From NCBI GenBank assembly GCA_009664345.1, contig CP043547.1, positions 992,001 to 1,056,000 on the forward strand: a stretch of DNA of 64,000 bases, read 5' to 3'. The translations under genes and the position numbers were made by a program. Shown piece after piece: positions 15,189-29,753 of this stretch. The DNA is from Planctomycetales bacterium 10988 (GTDB lineage Bacteria > Planctomycetota > Planctomycetia > Pirellulales > Pb10988). Below the pieces are notes generated by a model that was not told the origin of the DNA, did no database searches, and saw nothing but the letters and a program-made list of their open reading frames with translations. Every line of letters begins with the position of its first letter. Position 1 is the stretch's first letter.

Positions 15189-16538
15189 ATGTTTATTGTT
15201 GTTCGATCTCGAAAAGTGCTTTTTGCTTCTATGGCAGTCTTCTTGCTTGTGGGTCATGGGAAGGCGGGCGCTCAAGAACTCCTGAAAGACCCGGAGTTGG
15301 AGTATCCTGAGGTCGCCTGTCAACAGGAAGATTGGAAGCTTTCTCGGGAAGAATATCAACGCAAGCTACAAGGGTTCTGGCTCGGCGAGTGCATTGCAAA
15401 TTGGACGGGCCTTCGGACCGAGGGAGTGCGCAAGACGTCTCCTTTCCTGACCGATGAGCATTGGGGAACCCACAAAGGTCGCAAGCAACAAAAGATCGAA
15501 TTTGTGCTCATGAAGGAAGGAGAGGTCTGGGGGGCCGATGATGATACAGATATTGAATATATCTATCAAAGTATCCTGGATAAGAATAACGTCAGCATCG
15601 CCACGGCGGAACAAATTCGCGAAGGCTGGCTCACCCATATTAAGACCGAGGAACAGAACTATCTCTGGGTTTCGAATGAGAAGGCGCTTCATCTCATGAT
15701 GGAAGGGATGCTTCCGCCGCAAACGAGCGAACCGGAAAGCAACCCGCTCTATGACCAAATCGACGCTCAGTTGACGACCGAAATCTTCGGCCTTTTTGCA
15801 CCGGGTCGTCCTGACATCGCTTTAAAGATGGCACACCTGCCGATCCGCACGACGGCTTACCGAGATGCGGAATGGATTTCGGAATTTTACGTGCTCATGC
15901 ATAGTTTGGCTTCGCAGGTCGATCCTCAACTTTCCCAGAAAGACCAAGTCCTGTGGCTGGCGGATCAAGCCCGGAAGCGGCTGCCCAATCAATCGTATCC
16001 GGCGAAAATGTATGACTTCATCAAGCGGGAGTATGACCAGAATCCGGACAAAAACAATTGGGAAGAGACGCGTGACCGCCTTCATCGTCGACATACCGGC
16101 ATTACCACGGACGGGTATAATTACCGAAGTTGGTTTGATGCTGGAATCAACTTTGGGGCAAGCTTGATTAGCCTTTTCTATGGTGAGGGAGATTTCAAAA
16201 GGACCATTCAAATCGGAACGCTCTGCGGATGGGACTCGGATAACCCCACCGCGACCTGGGGTGGCTTACTCGGTTTTATGCTGGGAAGGGATGGCGTGGA
16301 AGCGACCTTTCCTGAGGTCAAGCTCTCTGGCAAGTATCAAATTTCTCGCACCAGGATCAATTTCCCCGACCGAACGCCGGACCAACTTGGCGATGATTCC
16401 TTTGAGCAAATGGCCGATCGAGGGATTCTCATCATTGATCGAGTGGTGATTGAAGAGATGGGAGGAACGGTCGATTTCGAGACGAATGAGTGGTGTATCC
16501 CCAAGTCGTCGCAGGCCATTCCCCCAGCCAATTATTGA
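15189..16538 (+). CDS. Secreted ADP-ribosylglycohydrolase-fold protein
   Basis: 449 residues from ATG 15189, preceded by GGAG; upstream codons are excluded. A signal peptide ends near AGAQ. The ADP-ribosylglycohydrolase fold shows as QGFWLGECIANWTGL near the mature start, a metal-binding GADDDTDIEYIYQ block at about residues 115-127, and the closing TLCGWDSDNPTATWGGLLGFMLG block near 340, which replaces the usual GGDADT sequence. True ADPRG enzymes are cytoplasmic, whereas this one is exported. In planctomycete sulfatase clusters it might remove a sugar or ribosyl-like group from glycans, which is a guess. It lies between an esterase and a sulfatase in the same direction. Confidence 0.8.
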   Translation: MFIVVRSRKVLFASMAVFLLVGHGKAGAQELLKDPELEYPEVACQQEDWKLSREEYQRKLQGFWLGECIANWTGLRTEGVRKTSPFLTDEHWGTHKGRKQQKIEFVLMKEGEVWGADDDTDIEYIYQSILDKNNVSIATAEQIREGWLTHIKTEEQNYLWVSNEKALHLMMEGMLPPQTSEPESNPLYDQIDAQLTTEIFGLFAPGRPDIALKMAHLPIRTTAYRDAEWISEFYVLMHSLASQVDPQLSQKDQVLWLADQARKRLPNQSYPAKMYDFIKREYDQNPDKNNWEETRDRLHRRHTGITTDGYNYRSWFDAGINFGASLISLFYGEGDFKRTIQIGTLCGWDSDNPTATWGGLLGFMLGRDGVEATFPEVKLSGKYQISRTRINFPDRTPDQLGDDSFEQMADRGILIIDRVVIEEMGGTVDFETNEWCIPKSSQAIPPANY

Positions 16539-16588
16539 ACAGAATGAAGACTCATCTTGATAGATTTCCTCCGAGGACAAAGCGAATC

Positions 16589-18169
16589 ATGAACCACACG
16601 CTAAAGATTTCCTTCTTGGTAATGCTCTTCCTTGCTTGGTTTTCGCCAGAGAATAGTTGGGCAGAGGATCAGCGACCCAATGTGATCCTCTTCCTGGTCG
16701 ACGATCTCGGCTGGAGTGACTTGGGCTGCTATGGGAGTTCCTTTTACGAAACCCCGCATATCGATCACTTTGCTGCTCAGTCGATGCGGTTCACTCAGGC
16801 CTATGCGGCTTGCCACGTCTGTTCCCCGACGAGAGCGAGTATTTTAACGGGGAAATATCCAGCGAGATTGCAATTGACGGACTGGCTCCCTGGTCGCAAG
16901 GATTTTCCATTCCAACAACTGTTGAATGCGGAGATCGAGGAAGCTTTGCCCTTGGAGGAGGTGACGCTTGCCGAGACGTTGAAGAAGCATGGCTACCGAA
17001 CGGCACATCTTGGGAAATGGCATCTTGGGGAAGAGCCTTTTGGCCCCACCCAACAAGGCTTCGATCTTCAAATTCCCCAATGGAATAAAGGTTGGCCCAA
17101 AGCGGGGTACCATGCCCCTTTTGAAATGGAAGGCCTTGAAGAGAAGTCGGGAGATTATCTCACGGACCGACTTACAGACGTGGCCGAAGAATTTCTTGAA
17201 GAGAATCAGGACCAGCCATTTTTTCTGTACTTTTCTCACTTTGCGGTGCATGATCCGATCGAAGGCCGCGAGGACCTGGTTCGGAAATACGAACAGAAGC
17301 GAACGTTACTTCCCGAGGAAGACAGGCCGTTTGTACTGGAGGGAAACCCCGCAGCGAACTACCCGCTTTCCGAAGATCAGCGAAGCCTTTTTCTCGAAAA
17401 GTCCGCTTGGTCCGGGTTTAAGCTTCTGCCACGTCAAACCGTGAAAATTAAACAGCGTCAAGATAATCCTCACTTTGCTGCCATGGTGGAATCGGTGGAT
17501 GAGAGTCTCGGGCGAATCTTGAAAAAGCTGAAAGAATTGAACCTTGATCAAGAAACCGTGATCCTTTTCATTTCCGATAACGGCGGAATGTCGGCGGCAA
17601 ACTTTGGAAATCCTCAACGGATTATCCCAGCTCGGAGTCTTGATCGTGCCTTTTCTACCTCGAATCTCCCTCTTCGGGGTGCCAAAGGATGGCTCTATGA
17701 GGGAGGGATTCGGGTGCCATTGATCATTCATTGGCCTCAACAAAAGCAATCGAGCGGCATCTGCGAAGTCCCAGTTATCAGCACGGACCTCTATCCGACC
17801 ATCCTGGAGCTAGTTGGAATCCCACTCCTGCCGAAGCAACACGCCGACGGAATGAGCCTTGTACCGTTATTGGCCGGAGAGAAGGAACTTGCTCGAGACG
17901 TTCTTTATTGGCATTTCCCGCATTATAGTAATCACGGTCAGCAAAGTCCCGGCGGAGCCATCCGCAAGGGTGATCTCAAGCTCTTGGAATATTTCGAAAA
18001 CGATACGGTCCAACTCTTTCATTTGCGTGATGATCCGGGTGAGCAACATGACCTCGCAGCGCAACACCCTGAACTTGTCGAGCAACTTCGGAATCAATTG
18101 CAATCCTGGAGGAGTGAAATTTCTGCCACGATGATGAGCCCCAATCCGGGATACCTTCCTAAGCCCTAA
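16589..18169 (+). CDS. Secreted sulfatase
   Basis: 526 residues from ATG 16589; the open frame starts 33 codons earlier inside the preceding gene. A signal peptide covers about 1-25. NVILFLVDDLGWSDLGCYG holds the metal pair Asp38-Asp39, CSPTR starts at Cys78, and HLGKWHLGEEPFGP and LFISDNGGMS follow in order. The C-terminal block has VLYWHFPHYSNHG and LYHL-like DDPGEQHDLAAQ. This layout is like the iduronate-/N-acetylgalactosamine-6-sulfatase type of bacterial sulfatases. It begins 50 bases after the ADP-ribosylglycohydrolase-like gene, so both probably share a transcript. Confidence 0.92.
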   Translation: MNHTLKISFLVMLFLAWFSPENSWAEDQRPNVILFLVDDLGWSDLGCYGSSFYETPHIDHFAAQSMRFTQAYAACHVCSPTRASILTGKYPARLQLTDWLPGRKDFPFQQLLNAEIEEALPLEEVTLAETLKKHGYRTAHLGKWHLGEEPFGPTQQGFDLQIPQWNKGWPKAGYHAPFEMEGLEEKSGDYLTDRLTDVAEEFLEENQDQPFFLYFSHFAVHDPIEGREDLVRKYEQKRTLLPEEDRPFVLEGNPAANYPLSEDQRSLFLEKSAWSGFKLLPRQTVKIKQRQDNPHFAAMVESVDESLGRILKKLKELNLDQETVILFISDNGGMSAANFGNPQRIIPARSLDRAFSTSNLPLRGAKGWLYEGGIRVPLIIHWPQQKQSSGICEVPVISTDLYPTILELVGIPLLPKQHADGMSLVPLLAGEKELARDVLYWHFPHYSNHGQQSPGGAIRKGDLKLLEYFENDTVQLFHLRDDPGEQHDLAAQHPELVEQLRNQLQSWRSEISATMMSPNPGYLPKP

Positions 18170-21422: not shown

Positions 21423-22742
21423 GTGAGCCAAACTACCACTTCTCCGGTAACCGCGGTGGTCCGATCCCCGATTCTCTGGGGAGGTCTGCTGACCGTTGGA
21501 TTTTATGGATTAATCCACGGAAAAATTCTCACACAACCGATCGTCGTTCAATACACAACCGGCCATCCCATCGAGTATGTAACGATGGCGATGTTCTTCA
21601 TCGCGCTGGTTGTTCTGTTAACAAAGTTGCTTGCAGCCAGAAAACAGTCGAAATATACCCAGCAAATCAGCCTGAGTGAGGTTCCTCCCGGCGGACAGTT
21701 AATAACGCAAACGGGTAGCCTGCTGGATGAACTTGAAAAAGGGAATAAGGCTCAAAAATCTTCCTGGTATGGCAAACGCCTTCGGGCCGGGCTTGAGTTT
21801 GTTAAACAACAGCGTTCGGCCGAAAAACTCCCTGATGAATTACGGCGTTTGGCAGAAGCTGACCTTGATCAGCAATACGCCAGCTATGGCCTTTTGCGAG
21901 TTATCATTTGGGCGATTCCGATTCTTGGCTTTTTGGGGACGGTCATGGGGATCACCCTGGCGATTGCCCACTTGGAAGTCGGAACCGGGGGGATTGAAGA
22001 AGCCCTCAAACCGCTGACCGAAGGGCTTGCCACTGCCTTCGATACCACGGCCTTAGCGTTGGCCTTGTCGCTGGTCTTGATGTTTGCTCAATACTTAGTC
22101 GATCAATTCGAGATGAAAATCTTCGAGAGTATCGAAGAACATGCCCACGATGAACTGACCGATCGTTTTGAATTTGTTGCCCGTGATGAAGACCCTATGT
22201 TGCGTTCGGTTCGCCGCATGGTCGATGCAATGTTGGCAACAACCGATCAACTCGTCGAACGCCAAGCCAAGATCTGGGAAGAGACAATTCTTTCCGCGAA
22301 AGATCGCTGGGAAGAAACTTCCAAACAACAGCAAGGCCTGCTGGAGGCAACTTTTTCTCAGTCGTTGAACCGCTCTTTAGAATTGCATTTGGAAAAGTTC
22401 GCTGCCCTCGAAGACCAAGCGACCGCGCGAACCAAATCGCAATGGGAAGCAATCCAATCGACATTGAAGATGAATGCGGATCTGTTGGCCACCGCTCAAA
22501 AGGAACATGCTCGCCATAGCGAGGTATTGATTGAGGCCGTCAAAGCGACCGGCGAAGTGACCAAGCTAGAGACCGCGTTGAACAAGAATCTTCACTCCCT
22601 TTCGCAAGCGGGTCAATTCGAAGAATCGATGATTACGCTCTCGGCAGTCCTGCAATTACTATCTGCCCGGCTCGGTGCCTCGGATGAGCAATTGCGTCAG
22701 ATTCATCTGCCTCGCTCTCAAAGCGAAGGAAACGCAGCATGA
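21423..22742 (+). CDS. MotA/TolQ/ExbB-like proton channel protein
   Basis: 439 residues from GTG 21423, with AAGGA nine bases upstream. Membrane helices lie at about 18-38 and 50-68, then after a cytoplasmic stretch the ExbB/TolQ core follows: GLLRVIIWAIPILGFLGTVM at about 158-177 and LTEGLATAFDTTALALALSL at about 198-217. The G-F-L-G-T-V-G-like and TTA-type patterns are those of proton-channel stator proteins. The C-terminal 200 residues are a cytoplasmic coiled coil, longer than in ExbB. It overlaps the next gene by four bases (ATGA), which shows translational coupling with the ExbD-like partner. It probably energises an envelope process by proton flow. Confidence 0.88.
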   Translation: MSQTTTSPVTAVVRSPILWGGLLTVGFYGLIHGKILTQPIVVQYTTGHPIEYVTMAMFFIALVVLLTKLLAARKQSKYTQQISLSEVPPGGQLITQTGSLLDELEKGNKAQKSSWYGKRLRAGLEFVKQQRSAEKLPDELRRLAEADLDQQYASYGLLRVIIWAIPILGFLGTVMGITLAIAHLEVGTGGIEEALKPLTEGLATAFDTTALALALSLVLMFAQYLVDQFEMKIFESIEEHAHDELTDRFEFVARDEDPMLRSVRRMVDAMLATTDQLVERQAKIWEETILSAKDRWEETSKQQQGLLEATFSQSLNRSLELHLEKFAALEDQATARTKSQWEAIQSTLKMNADLLATAQKEHARHSEVLIEAVKATGEVTKLETALNKNLHSLSQAGQFEESMITLSAVLQLLSARLGASDEQLRQIHLPRSQSEGNAA

Positions 22743-24946
22743 AACGACCGCGGCGACGTCAAGCCAATGTGTCCCTCTTCCCCTTCCTAGCAGTCTTACT
22801 TTGCACGATGGGTTCGCTCATTGTCGTGCTGGTCTTGATTGCGGAAAAGGCGAAAGAACATCTGTATGTAGCGGAAAACCCTACGCAAGTTGAAACGCAG
22901 GAGTCTCAAGAGCCTTCCGAAGAGGAAGCTACGCCCCTTCCGACTTCAACTCCTAAGACGAAGATTGCGGAGATCGTTCCGGTTCCTCCGAAGTTGCCTG
23001 CGTCAGAAGCCACAAAGGTTCCAAGCACGGAACCGGAAGAAAAGCCCGTCGTGACGAAAATGCCTTCTACTTCTAAGGAGAAACCCGAAGAAAATCTCCT
23101 CCTCGTTCCCCAATTCGAGACGGCCAGCGAATCGCTTGAGGAAAGCAACGGAGAGAGTCTTCCTTCCGAAATTCAACTTGAATTGGCGGATTGGCGTGTC
23201 GATCAGCTCAAGCAACAACGCGAACGAAGCTTGGAAGATTTAGCCGAGGAGCGTTTGCGATTGAGTGTGATCGAGGACCATCTTCATACATTGCGTCAGC
23301 AACTTGAAGAGGTAACTGTCTCATTGGAAGAGTTTGACCGCATTGAGGGAAGTCAGAAGTCTCAACGCGATCATCTCCTGCAAGAACTGAGTCAGCTTCA
23401 AGATTTACGAGATGAAAAAAGTAAAGAACTGGAAGAGACCAAGAAGAAGCTTGCCGATCGCCCTGCTTCTTTTGCGGTCGTTCCTTACGATGGTCCGAAT
23501 CAAACGCGACGGCGTCCGATCTACATTGAATGTCGAGAAGAGGAAATCATCCTTCAACCGGAAGGCATTCGATTTACAACCGATGACTTTGAAGGGCAAA
23601 TCACTGCCGATAACCCCTTGGCTTCCGCTGTCCGGGCGGCGACCGAAGAGATCATCGAGCAAGCTTACAACAATCCAGGGCAGGCAGCCCGGCCTTATCC
23701 TCTCATTCTTGTGCGACCGGAAGGGGTAGCGGCTTACCACGCTGTTCGGGTTGCTTTGCGTGATTGGGAGAGTGAGTTTGGCTATGAACTAGTCGGTTCG
23801 GATTGGGACCTTGCGTATCCATCTCCCGATCCTCAGGTCGCCGAGGCAGCGCGGGTCGCGGTTGAAGTGGCACGAGAACGGCAACGTGCTTTGGCTCGGA
23901 TTGCTCCTCGGTTGGTGCAAGGTCCGAATGCGAATCGTGGCGGATCGGGTAGCGGTCCATATTCCTCTTCTCTGCCCGAAGTCAATGTAGACAGCAGCGC
24001 GGCAGGACGCGGTCAACTACGAGGCCCCAATGGAGAAGCGACCGAAGGGGAACAAGAACCAAGCCCCTTCTCGATGTTTGCCGAAGGGTCGAACAATCCA
24101 CAAAACGGCACGAGTGGCAATGGAACCAATCGTCCATCCTCCGGCACCGGCCAAGTCAATTCCAGCGGCGAACGATCTGCTTATCCGCAGTCGAGCGAGT
24201 CGTTCACGGGTCCGCGCTATGCTGGCCAATCACAAACCGGTCAACCGAATTCCACGAATCCCCCCAATAGTCCGATGGGTCAGCGTTACGAGCAAAGCGG
24301 GGAATACGGTCAGCCGGGAACGAAAAGTTCCGAGAATAATCTCACCGGCTCACGCTACGCCTCTTCCTCGCAAAGCAGCTCTTCGCAAAGTGGAACTCCA
24401 GGACAAGGGCAACGCGGTAGCCAAGGTGGACCGAACGCACAAGGTCAACCTGGCACACCGGGACAACCTGGAAATGCCGCAGGTTCGGGTATGGGAACTC
24501 CAGGGGATCGACCGCAAAATTGGGCTCTGCGCGATGCTCCCAAAAACTCCTTTGCCGTACACCGTGAAATCCGTGTTCGTGTCGAGCCGGGAAGATTTGT
24601 CCTCATCCCTGATCAGCCTAATGAATCCGCCAGGGTGATTCCTTGGAAGGAAAATACGGCTCAATCCGCCGATGAACTGGTCAAGGAGATCTGGGAGAAG
24701 GTTGATTCTTGGGGCGTCGCCAGTAAAGGTTTTTACTGGCAACCGTCGCTTGTCATGATGGTCACACCCGAGGCGGAACGGCGTTATCCAGAAGTCACCC
24801 CTTGGATTAAAACGAGTGGCTTTCGACATCGCACGGAGCAAACGCCGTCGCTCCAACCGCAAGCGGCCCCGGTTGCACGAGGGCTGGAATCCAACGAAGA
24901 CGAGCCGCCGCTTCCTCCCCCGCCACCTGGCTTTTTCCGTCGTTGA
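22739..24946 (+). CDS. ExbD-like single-span protein with long low-complexity region, no membrane Asp
   Basis: 735 residues, GAAGGA before ATG 22739. One N-terminal helix (SLFPFLAVLLCTMGSLIVVL, about 12-31) sits where ExbD/TolR have PLLD; here the Asp position is Ala. A Glu/Pro-rich stretch and a coiled coil (about 150-240) follow. A folded part at about 245-390 ends with PLILVRPEGVAAYHAVRVAL and GYELVGSD, like the ExbD periplasmic domain. Then comes a Gly/Ser/Gln-rich segment (about 395-600) with three TGxRY-type repeats and collagen-like GxPG stretches, and a second folded domain (about 600-700). The C-terminus is proline-rich (PPLPPPPPGFFRR). It probably pairs with the ExbB-like protein as a structural partner without its own proton site. 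Confidence 0.75.
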   Translation: MKRPRRRQANVSLFPFLAVLLCTMGSLIVVLVLIAEKAKEHLYVAENPTQVETQESQEPSEEEATPLPTSTPKTKIAEIVPVPPKLPASEATKVPSTEPEEKPVVTKMPSTSKEKPEENLLLVPQFETASESLEESNGESLPSEIQLELADWRVDQLKQQRERSLEDLAEERLRLSVIEDHLHTLRQQLEEVTVSLEEFDRIEGSQKSQRDHLLQELSQLQDLRDEKSKELEETKKKLADRPASFAVVPYDGPNQTRRRPIYIECREEEIILQPEGIRFTTDDFEGQITADNPLASAVRAATEEIIEQAYNNPGQAARPYPLILVRPEGVAAYHAVRVALRDWESEFGYELVGSDWDLAYPSPDPQVAEAARVAVEVARERQRALARIAPRLVQGPNANRGGSGSGPYSSSLPEVNVDSSAAGRGQLRGPNGEATEGEQEPSPFSMFAEGSNNPQNGTSGNGTNRPSSGTGQVNSSGERSAYPQSSESFTGPRYAGQSQTGQPNSTNPPNSPMGQRYEQSGEYGQPGTKSSENNLTGSRYASSSQSSSSQSGTPGQGQRGSQGGPNAQGQPGTPGQPGNAAGSGMGTPGDRPQNWALRDAPKNSFAVHREIRVRVEPGRFVLIPDQPNESARVIPWKENTAQSADELVKEIWEKVDSWGVASKGFYWQPSLVMMVTPEAERRYPEVTPWIKTSGFRHRTEQTPSLQPQAAPVARGLESNEDEPPLPPPPPGFFRR

Positions 24947-25048
24947 TCGTTTCGTGATGGCCGAACGCGGCACTATTTCTAACTGTTTGCTGCGAAACGG
25001 CACCATGCATAGGTCGAGATTTCACTAGAGAACTCGAAGGAATTTCAC

Positions 25049-26272
25049 ATGTCGAAGCGATCCCGGAATGACCAACCCGAGTTTGGAAGTGATTCCTTTC
25101 TCGATATTGTTGCCAATATCGTCGGGATTCTGATTATTTTGGTGGTAGTAGTCGGGGTTCGAATTGGTTCAAGCCCCCAAGAATCGGACCAAGTCGTTGA
25201 GCTTGAACAATCGGAGCAAACGCCGGAACCTTCGACCCAAGAAGCCACCGAAACTGAAGAGCCTCCCGTGATTGCAGACACTCCTCCCCTTGAGATCGCT
25301 CCGCCTGTTCAAGTTACAGAGGCAGAAAAGCCAAGCGAACCGGAAGTCGTTGCCGAAGAGCCGGAGCCGAAGTTAATCAAACCGGCACAGAACGAACCTC
25401 CGAAAGAGCCGGCGAAGGTCGAAGACCCGAAGGTGAAAAACGAATTGCAACTTGCGACCGCTTCGATGGCAAGGTTGGAAGTGGAACGTGTCCGCCTCGA
25501 TCAAGATTTAAAGAAAATGCAAGTCCGCACGGCGATCCGTCACGCGGAACGTTCAAAAATTGCTTTTCGAGTTGCCTATCTGCAAGAACAACTCAATCGC
25601 AAACGCCAAACACTTTCACAAGATAAAAATGTCGAACTCGAACTCGCCCGCGAAGTTCAAGTGCTGCAAAAGCAATTAGGTGAGATCGATCGGGCCTTGG
25701 AAGTTGTCAGCAAAACCCCGAGTCAAGTTCAGAAGGTGGATCATCACACGACACCGCTGAGTCGAGCGGTCTTCGAGCAAGAAGAGCATTTTCAAATCCG
25801 CGGCGGACACATCATTTATGTGCCGGAAGAGGGATTGCGGGAGATGATCAAAGACGACGTGAAACGGCAACTTTGGCGACTGCAAAATGAAGATACTCTC
25901 GAAAATACACTCGGACCGTTGGACGGATTTCATGTGAAATATTTCGTCGCGCGTCAACGAGGTCCGCTTCCCAGTGGGGGGTATGGATATTCTGCCCGAC
26001 TCCTACGATGGAGCATTACCCCGATCGGGATCATCGGCGAAACCACCGAGGAAGCCCTAGCACCAAATTCACAATTCCGCTTGAAGTTGCAAGAGTTTTC
26101 TCCACGCCGGGTGACTCTGCTGGTCTGGGTCTATCCCGATAGCTTCGATGATTATCGAAAGATCGTCGAAGAACTGCATGAATTGGGATATACCGTGGCA
26201 GGGCATCCGCAAACAGAAGGCGAATCTCTTAATATCTCGACCATCGGCGGAATTCGCGCGACGGCTCAATAG
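25049..26272 (+). CDS. ExbD/TolR-like stator partner with membrane Asp
   Basis: 407 residues, AAGGA before ATG 25049. The N-terminal helix SFLDIVANIVGILIILVVVV (about 16-35) carries Asp19 in the position of the proton-binding Asp of ExbD, TolR and MotB. A Pro/Glu-rich spacer (about 45-130), a coiled coil (about 130-215) and a periplasmic C-terminal domain follow; this domain closes with RVTLLVWVYPDSFDDYRKIV and LGYTVAGHP, the same pattern as in the 735-residue neighbour. The two partners are therefore paralogous, and this one is the likely active ion-coupling subunit. It ends the three-gene operon after a gap of about 100 bases. Confidence 0.8.
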   Translation: MSKRSRNDQPEFGSDSFLDIVANIVGILIILVVVVGVRIGSSPQESDQVVELEQSEQTPEPSTQEATETEEPPVIADTPPLEIAPPVQVTEAEKPSEPEVVAEEPEPKLIKPAQNEPPKEPAKVEDPKVKNELQLATASMARLEVERVRLDQDLKKMQVRTAIRHAERSKIAFRVAYLQEQLNRKRQTLSQDKNVELELAREVQVLQKQLGEIDRALEVVSKTPSQVQKVDHHTTPLSRAVFEQEEHFQIRGGHIIYVPEEGLREMIKDDVKRQLWRLQNEDTLENTLGPLDGFHVKYFVARQRGPLPSGGYGYSARLLRWSITPIGIIGETTEEALAPNSQFRLKLQEFSPRRVTLLVWVYPDSFDDYRKIVEELHELGYTVAGHPQTEGESLNISTIGGIRATAQ

Positions 26273-26331: not shown

Positions 26332-27408
26332 CTAAAAGTCAACTGGGGGTCGAATCGGCGATTGTAAAAATTTGTGAATGGAAACCACTTCGCCGGTGCT
26401 GATTGAATCTTGGGCTGCCAAGCAAAGCGAGACCGCTTGATAGCCGTCTTGAACCGAGGCAGGTGGGGAACTTTTTCCATGGACGGCTTTGACAATCGCT
26501 GACATTTGCCGCCGCAATTCTATCCATTCTCCAGGGTCCGATTCAAATTCGACCTCTTCAATCGTATCCCCTTGCGAATAGGTCAGCCCATATTCCGCTT
26601 CGGACTGCTCGCTATCTTTTGCTTTCCAGTAAGCGATGATCGAGCCTTCGGTCCCGGTGATTTTGCAATTGATGTTATGTCCGAACGAGGCAACCGATTG
26701 CGTAATGACGGCGAAGCCATGGTGGGGAAAGCGGACCGTCGCGGTAAAGTTGTCTTGCAGTTCCGCTTGATAAATTCGGCGGCTATTGGCAAATGCATAA
26801 ACCGACTCCGGCTTGCCTAGCTCTTCAAGATACCACTGGGCCAAGTCGAAGAAATGGATGGGCTCTTCCAGAATCCAGTTCCCTACCTGGATCGGATCAT
26901 ATCGCCAGCCAGTCGACCCTTCCAAGAGTGGCAAGCGAGAAAGCTCAATCGAGGCATAGAGCGGGCGACCGATCCTTCGCTCTTGAATAAGCTGCTTAAT
27001 CTTCGCCCAAACCGGATGCACCCTCATTTCATGCCCGATGGCGATCACGGCGGAAGAATATTCCTTCGAAAGGTTTAGAAGACGCTTCGCTTCCGGAATG
27101 GAAAGCGACATCGGTTTCTCGATCAAGACATGCTTGCCAGCCTTGAGCGCGGCCTCCGCCATTTCAAAATGAAGATAATTCGGAGCAACCACATCAATCA
27201 CATCGATATCATCGCGTTGCAGCAGCTTTCGCCAATCCTCGACGACCTCTAAATCGGGATAGGTTTCCTCAGCCGCCTTTTTCGTCTGCGGCGAACGAAC
27301 TGCAATCGCACTCAACTCCGCTCCATCGGTCTGATCGATCGACCAAGCGTGATGTTTCCCATAAGAACCGAAACCAATTAATCCAAATCGCACAAGTGAA
27401 TCTGACAT
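26332..27408 (-). CDS. Gfo/Idh/MocA-family oxidoreductase
   Basis: 358 residues, cytoplasmic. The NAD(P)-binding part opens with RFGLIGFGSYGKHHAWSID, and the conserved GKHVLIEKPMSLS block (about residues 90-102) carries the EKP lysine used in this family. The C-terminal substrate domain follows, with GWRYDPIQVGNWILEEPIHF including the family histidine. Substrates are usually sugars, inositols or their derivatives. It may act on products of the neighbouring sulfatases, which is only inference. It is followed (upstream in the map) by an AAAAGTACTTTTT palindrome at 26288-26300. Confidence 0.9.
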   Translation of the reverse strand: MSDSLVRFGLIGFGSYGKHHAWSIDQTDGAELSAIAVRSPQTKKAAEETYPDLEVVEDWRKLLQRDDIDVIDVVAPNYLHFEMAEAALKAGKHVLIEKPMSLSIPEAKRLLNLSKEYSSAVIAIGHEMRVHPVWAKIKQLIQERRIGRPLYASIELSRLPLLEGSTGWRYDPIQVGNWILEEPIHFFDLAQWYLEELGKPESVYAFANSRRIYQAELQDNFTATVRFPHHGFAVITQSVASFGHNINCKITGTEGSIIAYWKAKDSEQSEAEYGLTYSQGDTIEEVEFESDPGEWIELRRQMSAIVKAVHGKSSPPASVQDGYQAVSLCLAAQDSISTGEVVSIHKFLQSPIRPPVDF

Positions 27409-28082: not shown

Positions 28083-29753
28083 TTACGGAACGGACTGGAC
28101 AGTTTCTTCGCTTTCCTTCCAGCCAAGGCGGTGTGCTTTCGCCTTGAGCTTCGTTCCGGACTCGACTTCAAAAGGTTTGAGGTAAAGGTGCCAAGTCTTC
28201 TCTTTCGGCAACTGATAGGCGATCGAAGCACCTTCGGTTTTCGAACTGAGCGAAATGCGGAACTTTCCATCCGCTGCTTCAGTCACTTCGAACTTCGTCG
28301 GTTTGGTCGTAGGTTGCTTGCCCTCCGGTGGCCAGAGATGCACAATCAATTCATCTTCGGTGATATGTCCCAGGTCACCAGTTTTCTTGGTCCAAGCTTC
28401 GTGGGCATCTCTCAATTCAGCCAATTTTTGAAAATGAGCCGGGTCCGCCGCGAGGTTGTGGATTTCGTGGGGATCGTTTTGAGTATCGTACAATTCTTCT
28501 AAAGGTTTCTTCTCTGCCCAGAATTGCCACATGTTCGGCTGATGATCGCCACTTTCGACCATGTGCAAAATCTCTTGCATGATGGCCTGTTGATTGCGAT
28601 AGGGGACGAAACCTAGATAAGGCAAGTCAGGGCGATAATTGCGAATGTACTTGTAACGGCTATCGCGAACGGCGCGGATCGTTTCCGGAGCGGGGTCCAT
28701 ACGATCACGACAAGCATAGATATAGTCGCGAGGATCGACTTTTTCCGGTCCAAGAAACGCTTGTCCTTGGAAATGCTTGGGGATATCAACGCCGGCTAGC
28801 GATAATACAGTCGGAGCAAGATCGACAAAGCTGACCAACTCATCATTGACCGTGCCCGCTTCTTTCTTATGGGGAAATCGAACGATCAAAGGAACATGGA
28901 TTCCCGAATCGTAAACCCATCGCTTATGCCGAGGCAATCCATCGCCGTGGTCGCTGTAGAAAAAGATAATCGTCTTTTCTAAAAGCCCGTCCTTCTCCAA
29001 ATCCTTCAGAATCTTCCCCACCCACTCATCCATCGCCACGATGTTGTCGTAATGGCGGGCGACATCCCGACGAACGATTTCGGTATCGGGATAGAAAGGT
29101 GGCAGTGGAACTTCGTTCGGATCGACCACCTGCGGAGAACGTTGCTTGAACACACCACTTTCATGCGTGGTGGTATTGTTGAAAACGGCAAAGAAAGGCT
29201 GATCAGGGTCAGGACGGTTTCGATAGTGGGCTGTTCGACTCGATTCATTCCATGCCGCGATGGGATTGTCAAATTGATAATCCGTCTTGCTGTTATTCGT
29301 GCAATAATATCCAGCGGCTTGCAAATACTCCGGAAAACAGTGAGCTTCCGCCGGGGGAGTTGCTTCATAAGTGGGAATGGCCAGAAGCTCTGGGTCTTTG
29401 ATCATGTGCAAGGCCCCGGTTCGCTTCCAAGTTCGCATGGCCATGGCCCCGGTGGAAACGGGATACATTCCCATAATAATCGTGTGTCGATTGGGGGCAC
29501 AAACGCCATAAGTCCCAAAGGCTTTCGTATAACGAACACCTTCAGCAGCCAAACGATCGATGTTCGGTGTAGCAACGGTATGATCCCCATAGCAGCCAAG
29601 ATGCGGACTCATATCCTCACAGGTAATCCACAGGATCGAAGGGGGTGTCTCGTCTTCAGCTTTTGCCGTGGACTGAGAGGACAGCGAAGCAAATAAGAGG
29701 AAACAAGCAACGCTAAGTATGCCCAAGAATCTGAATCGTCTAGTATCGTTCAT
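28083..29753 (-). CDS. Secreted sulfatase with CAPNR motif and hexosaminidase-type C-terminal domain
   Basis: 556 residues; signal peptide about 1-32. ILWITCEDMSPHLGCYGDHT carries Glu46-Asp47 as the first metal pair, as is common in this planctomycete subfamily. The modification motif is CAPNR at Cys85, with Asn in place of the usual Ser/Thr/Ala; the essential Cys, Pro and Arg are kept. IFFYSDHGDG supplies later ligands. Beyond residue 470 a small beta domain (FRISLSSKTEGASIAYQLPK, FEVESGTKLKAKAHRLGWK) resembles the chitobiase/beta-hexosaminidase C-terminal type, perhaps for substrate contact. It stands alone between two MITE-like repeats. Confidence 0.9.
   Translation of the reverse strand: MNDTRRFRFLGILSVACFLLFASLSSQSTAKAEDETPPSILWITCEDMSPHLGCYGDHTVATPNIDRLAAEGVRYTKAFGTYGVCAPNRHTIIMGMYPVSTGAMAMRTWKRTGALHMIKDPELLAIPTYEATPPAEAHCFPEYLQAAGYYCTNNSKTDYQFDNPIAAWNESSRTAHYRNRPDPDQPFFAVFNNTTTHESGVFKQRSPQVVDPNEVPLPPFYPDTEIVRRDVARHYDNIVAMDEWVGKILKDLEKDGLLEKTIIFFYSDHGDGLPRHKRWVYDSGIHVPLIVRFPHKKEAGTVNDELVSFVDLAPTVLSLAGVDIPKHFQGQAFLGPEKVDPRDYIYACRDRMDPAPETIRAVRDSRYKYIRNYRPDLPYLGFVPYRNQQAIMQEILHMVESGDHQPNMWQFWAEKKPLEELYDTQNDPHEIHNLAADPAHFQKLAELRDAHEAWTKKTGDLGHITEDELIVHLWPPEGKQPTTKPTKFEVTEAADGKFRISLSSKTEGASIAYQLPKEKTWHLYLKPFEVESGTKLKAKAHRLGWKESEETVQSVP

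What the first reader, a model, noticed from the sequence alone, without database searches (positions are those of the whole stretch)
21423..26272. Three-gene stator-like system with one active and one Asp-less ExbD-like partner
An ExbB/TolQ-like protein with a long coiled coil is coupled to two large single-span partners. The 407-residue one has Asp in the ExbD/TolR/MotB position (SFLDIV), the 735-residue one has Ala (PFLAVL). Both end in similar ExbD-like periplasmic domains. Normal systems use two identical Asp-bearing copies, so an asymmetric heteromer would be new. The very long coiled-coil and low-complexity parts suggest reaching across a wide periplasm. No TonB gene is near.
Basis: partly seen in the sequence, partly recalled or inferred. 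Interest (0 to 1): 0.7.

Follow-up and report, generated by a model that had tools for sequence, protein, structure and literature searches.

The report
Proton motor with one uncharged axle
Many planctomycete bacteria carry a three-gene membrane motor in which one of two related axle proteins has the proton-carrying residue and the other usually lacks it, a lopsided design that could show how such rotary motors use protons.

Summary
A (21423-22742) is a MotA/ExbB-family protein; B (22739-24946, FPFLAVL) and C (25049-26272, DSFLDIV) have aligned membrane helices. The trio keeps its order in 14 other genomes of a 246-genome phylum draw. C has Asp19 in 92 of 92 distinct loci; B has Ala in 74, Thr in 1, Asp in 7 of 82: strongly conserved, not absolute. 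Six of the seven Asp-bearing B genes go with one A clade that differs at positions invariant in the other 70 A proteins (G176H, I177F, L202M), though the B genes form two clades; the seventh has no A in view. B position 18 and A thus seem coupled. B and C each have a predicted ~97-residue heptad helix. Most likely this is a proton-driven A5:B1C1 motor with one proton site per axle (0.55). Paired axle genes are known, with Asp in both where I could check; I found no report of an Asp-less partner. Heterodimer, stoichiometry and task are untested; ExbD-like periplasmic domains are weakly supported.

The parts
21423..22742 (+). Gene A: MotA/TolQ/ExbB-family subunit, 439 aa, with a ~210-residue C-terminal tail of helical periodicity and a conserved end
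   Evidence: PF01618 45.2 bits, cut-off 22.9; alignment A3; tail hydrophobic period 3.65, 0 of 300 shuffles as strong; A was not modelled
21939..21941 (+). Thr173 of A (GFLGTV motif)
   Evidence: invariant in 76 of 76 A sequences; codon read; equivalence to the pore threonine of ExbB/TolQ recalled
22044..22049 (+). Thr208-Thr209 of A (AFDTTA motif)
   Evidence: both invariant in 76 of 76; Thr208 codon read; pore role recalled
22739..24946 (+). Gene B: Asp-less single-span partner, 735 aa
   Evidence: no Pfam family up to E 1
22778..22876 (+). Membrane helix of B (model residues 14-46); no acidic residue in 14-35
   Evidence: AF2 model; residue counts
22790..22792 (+). Ala18 of B, at the register of the Asp of C
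   Evidence: 74 Ala, 7 Asp, 1 Thr of 82; profile alignment
23165..23458 (+). 98-residue helix of B with 3.5-residue (heptad) periodicity
   Evidence: AF2; 0 of 300 shuffles as strong
23507..23791 (+). Alpha/beta domain 1 of B (residues 257-351), weakly TolR-like
   Evidence: AF2; 5by4 Z 5.8
23927..24490 (+). Gly/Ser/Pro/Gln/Asn-rich linker of B (residues 397-584)
   Evidence: pLDDT mostly under 50; composition
24551..24841 (+). Alpha/beta domain 2 of B (residues 605-701), related to domain 1
   Evidence: AF2; profile alignment of the two domains, probability 95%
25049..26272 (+). Gene C: Asp-bearing single-span partner, 407 aa
25091..25168 (+). Membrane helix of C (residues 15-40) with Asp15, Asp19 and Asn23 at i, i+4, i+8
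   Evidence: AF2; columns
25103..25105 (+). Asp19 of C, the candidate proton site
   Evidence: 92 of 92 distinct loci
25427..25714 (+). 96-residue helix of C with 3.5-residue (heptad) periodicity
   Evidence: AF2; 0 of 300 shuffles as strong
25778..26239 (+). C-terminal alpha/beta domain of C (residues 244-397)
   Evidence: AF2, block means of pLDDT 90-98 for most of it

Best explanation
The trio is a proton-driven motor of the 5:2 kind (MotAB, ExbBD, TolQR) whose axle is a B:C heterodimer. Five A subunits form the ring. One B and one C membrane helix stand in its pore and continue as a parallel B:C coiled coil of about 14 nm into the periplasm. Only C carries a proton site (Asp19); Ala18 of B is a permanently neutral stand-in. 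In a homodimer each 36-degree step passes one proton on alternating sites; here one site would serve, so about 5 instead of 10 protons pass per turn, in 72-degree steps. B supplies a long flexible linker and a second domain that could reach peptidoglycan or outer membrane. Shown: gene trio, conserved Asp/Ala pair, aligned membrane helices, heptad helices of matching length, co-occurrence of B residue 18 with A type. Inferred: stoichiometry, heterodimer, place of B in the pore, rotation, proton count, cellular task.
For: Same order A-B-C in all 15 genomes of the 246-genome draw that have strong matches. C Asp19 in 92 of 92; B residue 18 non-acidic in 75 of 82, with no other acidic residue in B 14-35 in those 75. 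B and C helices align in one register. B position 18 holds Asp in the otherwise same motif FPFLDVL in 5 loci, as expected of a true axle position. All six B-Asp loci with a readable A share one A clade with G176H, I177F, T178G, G201E, L202M, though their B genes lie in two clades; the B data reject one clade of the seven Asp rows, p-AU 4.5e-123. Predicted helices of 98 and 96 residues, both peaking at 3.5-residue periodicity. A keeps Thr173, Thr208, Thr209 in 76 of 76. In the 3 loci with C alone, the genome has A-B elsewhere, with Ala in B.
Against: No complex was modelled or observed, and A was not modelled, so the place of residues 176-178 and 201-202 is not shown. Seven B genes have Asp, so the empty site is not indispensable. 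The six coupled loci are about two independent events (five are near relatives), and the A clade differs from the rest at 28 columns in all, most of which cannot bear on B. The TonB/TolA-like layout of B also fits a place beside the ring. B and C periplasmic domains show no sequence likeness to each other. Equal helix length would also suit two homodimers. The published turnstile model swaps protons between two sites (PMC9389320, section 9 part 1), so a one-site axle needs a modified cycle.
Confidence: 0.55

Rival explanations
1. C forms an ordinary homodimeric axle, and B is a TonB/TolA-like force transducer that binds the outside of the A ring. A missing Asp in B would then be expected.
For: B has a membrane helix, a ~190-residue low-confidence linker and an end domain, and no TonB_C domain lies in the window.
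Against: B and C membrane helices align in one register; B holds Asp at this very position in 7 of 82 loci; B residue 18 goes with the A type; the His of the TonB/TolA SHLS motif (PMC12204202 section 8) has no counterpart in the window's B helix before residue 41; B has a heptad helix of nearly the same length as that of C.
Confidence: 0.22
2. A makes two alternative complexes, an active A5C2 and a dead A5B2, and B works as a brake, decoy or regulator of motor number.
For: B keeps the axle-helix register but no proton site; genes overlap or adjoin and are probably made together.
Against: B is larger than C and has two conserved domains, more than a decoy needs; Asp occurs in B in some lineages.
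Confidence: 0.12
3. The Asp/Ala difference is minor drift in a two-ExbD system such as AglRQS and has no mechanistic weight.
For: Both-Asp forms exist within the family (7 of 82) and in type III (8 loci).
Against: Ala is held in 74 of 82 B genes across a deep tree on which Ala/Asp needs only two changes, and the six cases with a readable A have a distinct A.
Confidence: 0.06
4. The complex is a static envelope scaffold that no longer uses the proton gradient.
For: Function is unknown, and one of two possible proton sites is absent in most loci.
Against: Asp19 of C in 92 of 92 and A Thr173, Thr208, Thr209 in 76 of 76 are kept although window A and B share only 22-41% identity with their relatives in the alignments.
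Confidence: 0.05

Closest known systems
AglRQS gliding motor of Myxococcus xanthus
   Same: One MotA-like gene with two different MotB/TolR-like genes; whether they form heterodimers is stated to be unknown (PMC9389320 passages).
   Different: AglQ and AglS are described with a conserved membrane aspartate (PMC9389320 passage) and both match PF02472, 162 and 194 aa (PMC3169522 passages). Here the partners have 735 and 407 aa, no PF02472 match, and B lacks the Asp.
ExbB-ExbD1-ExbD2 systems (Sphingobium SYK-6, Xanthomonas)
   Same: Two different ExbD genes beside one ExbB (PMC8599685 and PMC3551730 passages).
   Different: Asp25 is conserved in ExbD1 and ExbD2 of SYK-6 (PMC8599685 passage); for Xanthomonas the passages do not say. 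TonB lies in the SYK-6 operon.
PVC clusters with a tolQ-like gene, two heterologous tolR-like genes, TPR and vWA genes
   Same: Reported in the PVC group, with Planctomycetes named among the phyla; [quoted passage not shown]
   Different: That description centres on a vWA transducer and a TPR gene. No vWA match in A, B or C, and no third gene is conserved beside this trio. Section 8 reports no Asp-less partner; its second family, paired vWA proteins with an axle helix, has the Asp. Some of my types III-V may belong there; not tested.
MotAB / TolQR / ExbBD (5:2 motors)
   Same: Ring subunit of PF01618 with conserved threonines; axle helix with Asp in C.
   Different: Axle partners are two diverged genes, one without Asp; neither matches PF02472.
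ZorAB of the Zorya defence system
   Same: MotA-like subunit with a long C-terminal tail (tail of ZorA recalled).
   Different: PADLOC ZorA1 15.6 bits over residues 166-234 only; NCBIfam ZorA 12.0 bits, cut-off 500; C has no PADLOC match and B only matches along its coiled-coil stretch.

Membership tests
MotA/TolQ/ExbB (gene A) | PF01618 over curated cut-off | tested here: met
   45.2 bits, cut-off 22.9
MotA/TolQ/ExbB (gene A) | Conserved threonines of the two inner helices | tested here: met
   Thr173, Thr208, Thr209 in 76 of 76; equivalence to ExbB Thr148/Thr181 recalled
MotA/TolQ/ExbB (gene A) | Pentamer | not testable with these tools
   only single chains can be modelled
ExbD/TolR (gene C) | PF02472 match | tested here: not met
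   not listed for the window protein, nor among the 25 families shown of 95 for the 15 members; control: 7 hits elsewhere in the genome
ExbD/TolR (gene C) | Aspartate in the single membrane helix | tested here: met
   92 of 92 distinct loci; the 77 were partly selected by a pattern that contains it, the 15 were not
ExbD/TolR (gene C) | TolR/ExbD periplasmic fold | tested here: inconclusive
   best Z 6.0, to unrelated proteins
ExbD/TolR (gene B) | PF02472 match | tested here: not met
   no family for the window protein; not among the 25 families shown of 66 for the 15 members
ExbD/TolR (gene B) | Aspartate in the single membrane helix | tested here: not met
   Ala in the window and in 74, Thr in 1, Asp in 7 of 82 loci
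ExbD/TolR (gene B) | TolR/ExbD periplasmic fold | tested here: inconclusive
   5by4 Z 5.8, 85 aligned, 4.0 A, rank 50 below many unrelated rows
AglRQS | One ring gene with two different axle genes | tested here: met
   if B is an axle protein
AglRQS | Aspartate in both axle proteins | tested here: not met
AglRQS | Glt envelope partners | not tested
   no search for Glt proteins was made; C has a sub-threshold NCBIfam match to GltJ, 19.2 bits, cut-off 450
Ton system | TonB (TonB_C domain) at the locus | tested here: not met
   both TonB_C hits of the genome lie outside the window
Tol-Pal system | TolA, TolB, Pal at the locus | not tested
   no search for these families was made
vWA-transducer clusters of PVC bacteria | vWA gene beside the motor genes | tested here: inconclusive
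   no vWA match in A, B, C or the three neighbours scanned; neighbours at other loci were clustered, not annotated one by one
Zorya ZorAB | ZorA over the NCBIfam cut-off | tested here: not met
   12.0 bits, cut-off 500; PADLOC ZorA1 15.6 bits over 69 residues

The most novel reading that the evidence does not exclude
A one-site 5:2 rotary motor kept across a bacterial class: a heterodimeric axle in which one strand carries the proton and the other, permanently neutral, carries the reach across the envelope. It works at half the protons per turn, and lineages switch between one-site and two-site gearing by a single Ala/Asp change in B tied to a change of ring subunit.
Probability: 0.4. Interest if true: 0.85.

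Novelty: new variant of a known kind. Interest (0 to 1): 0.68.

Why it matters
Which protonation states the axle dimer of 5:2 motors passes through (doubly charged or doubly protonated) is stated to be unknown (PMC9389320 section 9 part 1), and whether both aspartates must work is a natural question from it. A natural motor with one site, plus close relatives with two sites and a matching ring, would make this testable without mixed mutant dimers. It would also offer a fixed heterodimeric axle in which each strand can be labelled separately.

Tried and rejected
Compensation by another acid was considered and rejected: no acidic residue in B 14-35 in 75 of 75 non-Asp loci, and Asp207 of A (AFDTT) also occurs in A proteins of both-Asp and single-partner families, so it is no stand-in. 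A Zorya reading was rejected. A functional clue from neighbours was sought in 52 loci: besides A, B and C (43, 48 and 47 of 52) the most frequent are an HTH-like membrane protein (16 of 52) and a ~1350-residue protein without Pfam match (13 of 52). The latter occurs in 16 of 246 genomes, the 15 trio genomes and G105, which has no trio; this may only follow the class. Fold searches of C and B gave no match with E up to 0.001 and middling Z to ribosomal S11, YqgF and actin-like proteins; ExbD was not among the rows shown, which excludes nothing. C has a sub-threshold match to the gliding protein GltJ (19.2 bits, cut-off 450), which I did not follow. Plasmids: no match to C. The paper on essential genes of Planctopirus limnophila was searched for six words in its main text only. 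Literature searches that showed no Asp-less axle partner: (listings, plus the passages cited); most subscription papers are not in that library.

Full report
WHAT IS THERE. The three frames are real genes. A (439 aa) overlaps B by four bases, and C starts 102 bases after B. A is a MotA/ExbB-family protein (PF01618, 45.2 bits). B and C match no Pfam or NCBIfam family of axle proteins at E up to 1; C has a sub-threshold NCBIfam match to the gliding protein GltJ, 19.2 bits against a cut-off of 450. The genome, one contig of 6.65 Mb, has six PF01618 matches, A being the weakest, seven ExbD (PF02472) hits and two TonB_C hits. None of the ExbD or TonB_C hits lies in the window. All seven canonical ExbD proteins have the Asp, and four of them form two ExbB-ExbD-ExbD triads, so paired axle genes as such are nothing special here.

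CONSERVATION. With C as a single query, 16 of 246 genomes of the phylum draw match; 15 of them (the own genome included) strongly, the sixteenth, G017, only at 5e-4 with a diverged relative. All 15 have A, B and C in the same order. Profile searches with C, with the first part of B, and with A give the same 15 genomes as their strongest hits. They are all the same-class genomes listed in these outputs except G105, which has none of the three. In the 15, Asp19 of C is invariant, and B residue 18 is Ala in 14 and Thr in one.

A scan of the genome collection gave 355 relatives of C, of which the tool kept the best 80. One of its two patterns contains the Asp, so the 80 are partly selected for it; at least four (L175, L183, L215, L230, with FQD or FTD) do not fit that pattern and have the Asp as well. 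B lies next to C in 72 of 80. In five, C is at a contig edge (L176, L180, L187, L237, L250), and in three (L198, L226, L248) no B is beside it. In the genomes of those three, A and B lie together elsewhere, and B has Ala in each. An A match was found in 66 of 80 loci, in five of them after C, otherwise before B. L173 and L216 have over 3 kb before B but no A match there; in the genome of L173 none was found at E up to 0.001.

Over all distinct loci (80 + 15 - 3 = 92), C has Asp19 in 92 of 92, Asp15 in 92 and Asn23 in 90. B residue 18 is Ala in 74, Asp in 7 and Thr in 1 of the 82 loci where it can be read. In the 75 non-Asp loci the B segment 14-35 has no acidic residue.

THE EXCEPTIONS. Five B-Asp loci (L206, L222, L233, L234, L249) have FPFLDVL and the order B-C-A; L191 has FSFLDGM (order A-B-C) and L173 FTFLDVM. 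On the B tree, built without the column in question, the seven form two groups among Ala rows, and the AU test rejects one group, p 4.5e-123 (the group was defined by the residue, but after I had seen the tree). L206 and its Ala-bearing sisters L225 and L236 are nearly alike around the site. On the A tree the six A proteins that go with B-Asp form one clade, support 100. At window positions 176, 177 and 202 the 70 other A proteins are invariant Gly, Ile and Leu, and these six are invariant His, Phe and Met; positions 178 and 201 are also cleanly split (I recounted the positions from the motif starts that it prints, because the script's own residue numbers are shifted by dropped insert columns). 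The simplest reading is that the L206 line took in a foreign ring subunit and that its resident B gained Asp. But 28 A columns in all separate the two sets, as expected of a diverged clade, and the case rests on about two independent events. The trees are quick ones, rooted at the midpoint.

WIDER FAMILY. I looked at 42 further loci of the phylum draw, chosen from weaker A or C matches (L041, L042, L132-L171). Thirteen A loci have an Asp-less B with Ser at the site, eight with an Asp-bearing C beside it and five whose C lies elsewhere in the same genome (those C genes are five more of the 42 loci, L165-L169). Fifteen have two partners that both carry Asp, eight of them of a type III with LF.FQD in B. 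In seven only one partner, with Asp, was seen, and two (L163, L170) were not resolved. The Gly seven residues on is kept in nearly all (L154 has Ala). On an A tree of these types the asymmetric rows need four changes (several long branches). That B lost the Asp, rather than others gaining it, is my inference from its presence in the more distant families; the tree does not show direction.

ANATOMY. The AF2 model of C has a membrane helix 15-40, a helix 127-222 and an alpha/beta domain 244-397 (mean pLDDT 80.4). That of B has a membrane helix 14-46, a helix 143-240, a domain 257-351, a low-confidence linker and a second domain 605-701 (mean pLDDT 67.8). Domains 1 and 2 of B are related (probability 95%); the C domain resembles neither by sequence. 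Alignment-averaged hydrophobicity along both long helices peaks at 3.5 residues (grid 0.05), stronger than in any of 300 shuffles, the sign of a coiled coil. Similar length (98 and 96) suits pairing of B with C but would also suit two homodimers. The A tail has a period of 3.65. About 97 residues of helix make about 14 nm (arithmetic). A was not modelled, and no complex could be.

MECHANISM. In the published turnstile model one proton is coupled to 36 degrees and the two sites alternate (PMC9389320 section 9 part 1; PMC12905483 passages). A neutral Ala would act like a permanently protonated site. I therefore infer one-site operation, about five protons per turn. That B stands in the pore is supported by the helix register, by Asp at that very position in some lineages and by its co-occurrence with the A type; that B and C pair is inferred. 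The task is unknown. The long helices, the linker and the doubled end domain suggest force or contact across the periplasm.

NOVELTY. Two different axle genes with one ring gene are in print: AglRQS (PMC9389320 and PMC3169522 passages), ExbD1/ExbD2 (PMC8599685 and PMC3551730 passages) and PVC clusters with paired tolR-like genes (PMC12204202 section 8). Where the passages speak to it (AglQ/AglS, SYK-6 ExbD1/ExbD2), Asp is in both partners; a 2026 review calls this Asp absolutely required (PMC12905483 passage). My searches showed no report of a conserved Asp-less partner; most subscription papers are not in that library. I rate it a new variant of a known kind.

Noticed in passing
G000:C1 5113224-5114540 and 2375364-2376795 (own genome, outside the window): Two canonical ExbB-ExbD-ExbD triads with Asp in both ExbD proteins: a both-Asp comparison in the same cell.
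   Followed up: partly
L135, L137-L140 with L165-L169: In five genomes the type II system keeps A and Asp-less B together while an Asp-bearing C (SLDSLLDTMTNVVGIL) lies elsewhere in the genome.
   Followed up: partly
L032 13466-17119 and relatives: A ~1350-residue protein without Pfam match lies beside the trio in 13 of 52 loci and occurs in 16 of 246 genomes, the 15 trio genomes and G105.
   Followed up: partly
L179 4654-5925 and relatives: An HTH-like protein with a C-terminal hydrophobic segment lies near the trio in 16 of 52 loci (sub-threshold HTH_17 match).
   Followed up: no
L149, L158, L162: In other motor loci a protein that looks like a protein kinase (L149) or Hsp70-like (L158, L162) is encoded between the ring gene and two Asp-bearing partners (named from sequence alone).
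   Followed up: no
L143, L149, L157, L158, L162, L164, L171: Seven loci with two related partners, both with Asp: a further family of paired axle genes.
   Followed up: partly
window 25049-26272: C has a sub-threshold NCBIfam match to the gliding protein GltJ over residues 20-147, 19.2 bits, cut-off 450.
   Followed up: no
window 16490-18169, 28083-29753 and 26332-27408: Frames on both sides of the trio that look like sulfatases (from sequence alone), and an oxidoreductase with GFO_IDH_MocA domains.
   Followed up: no
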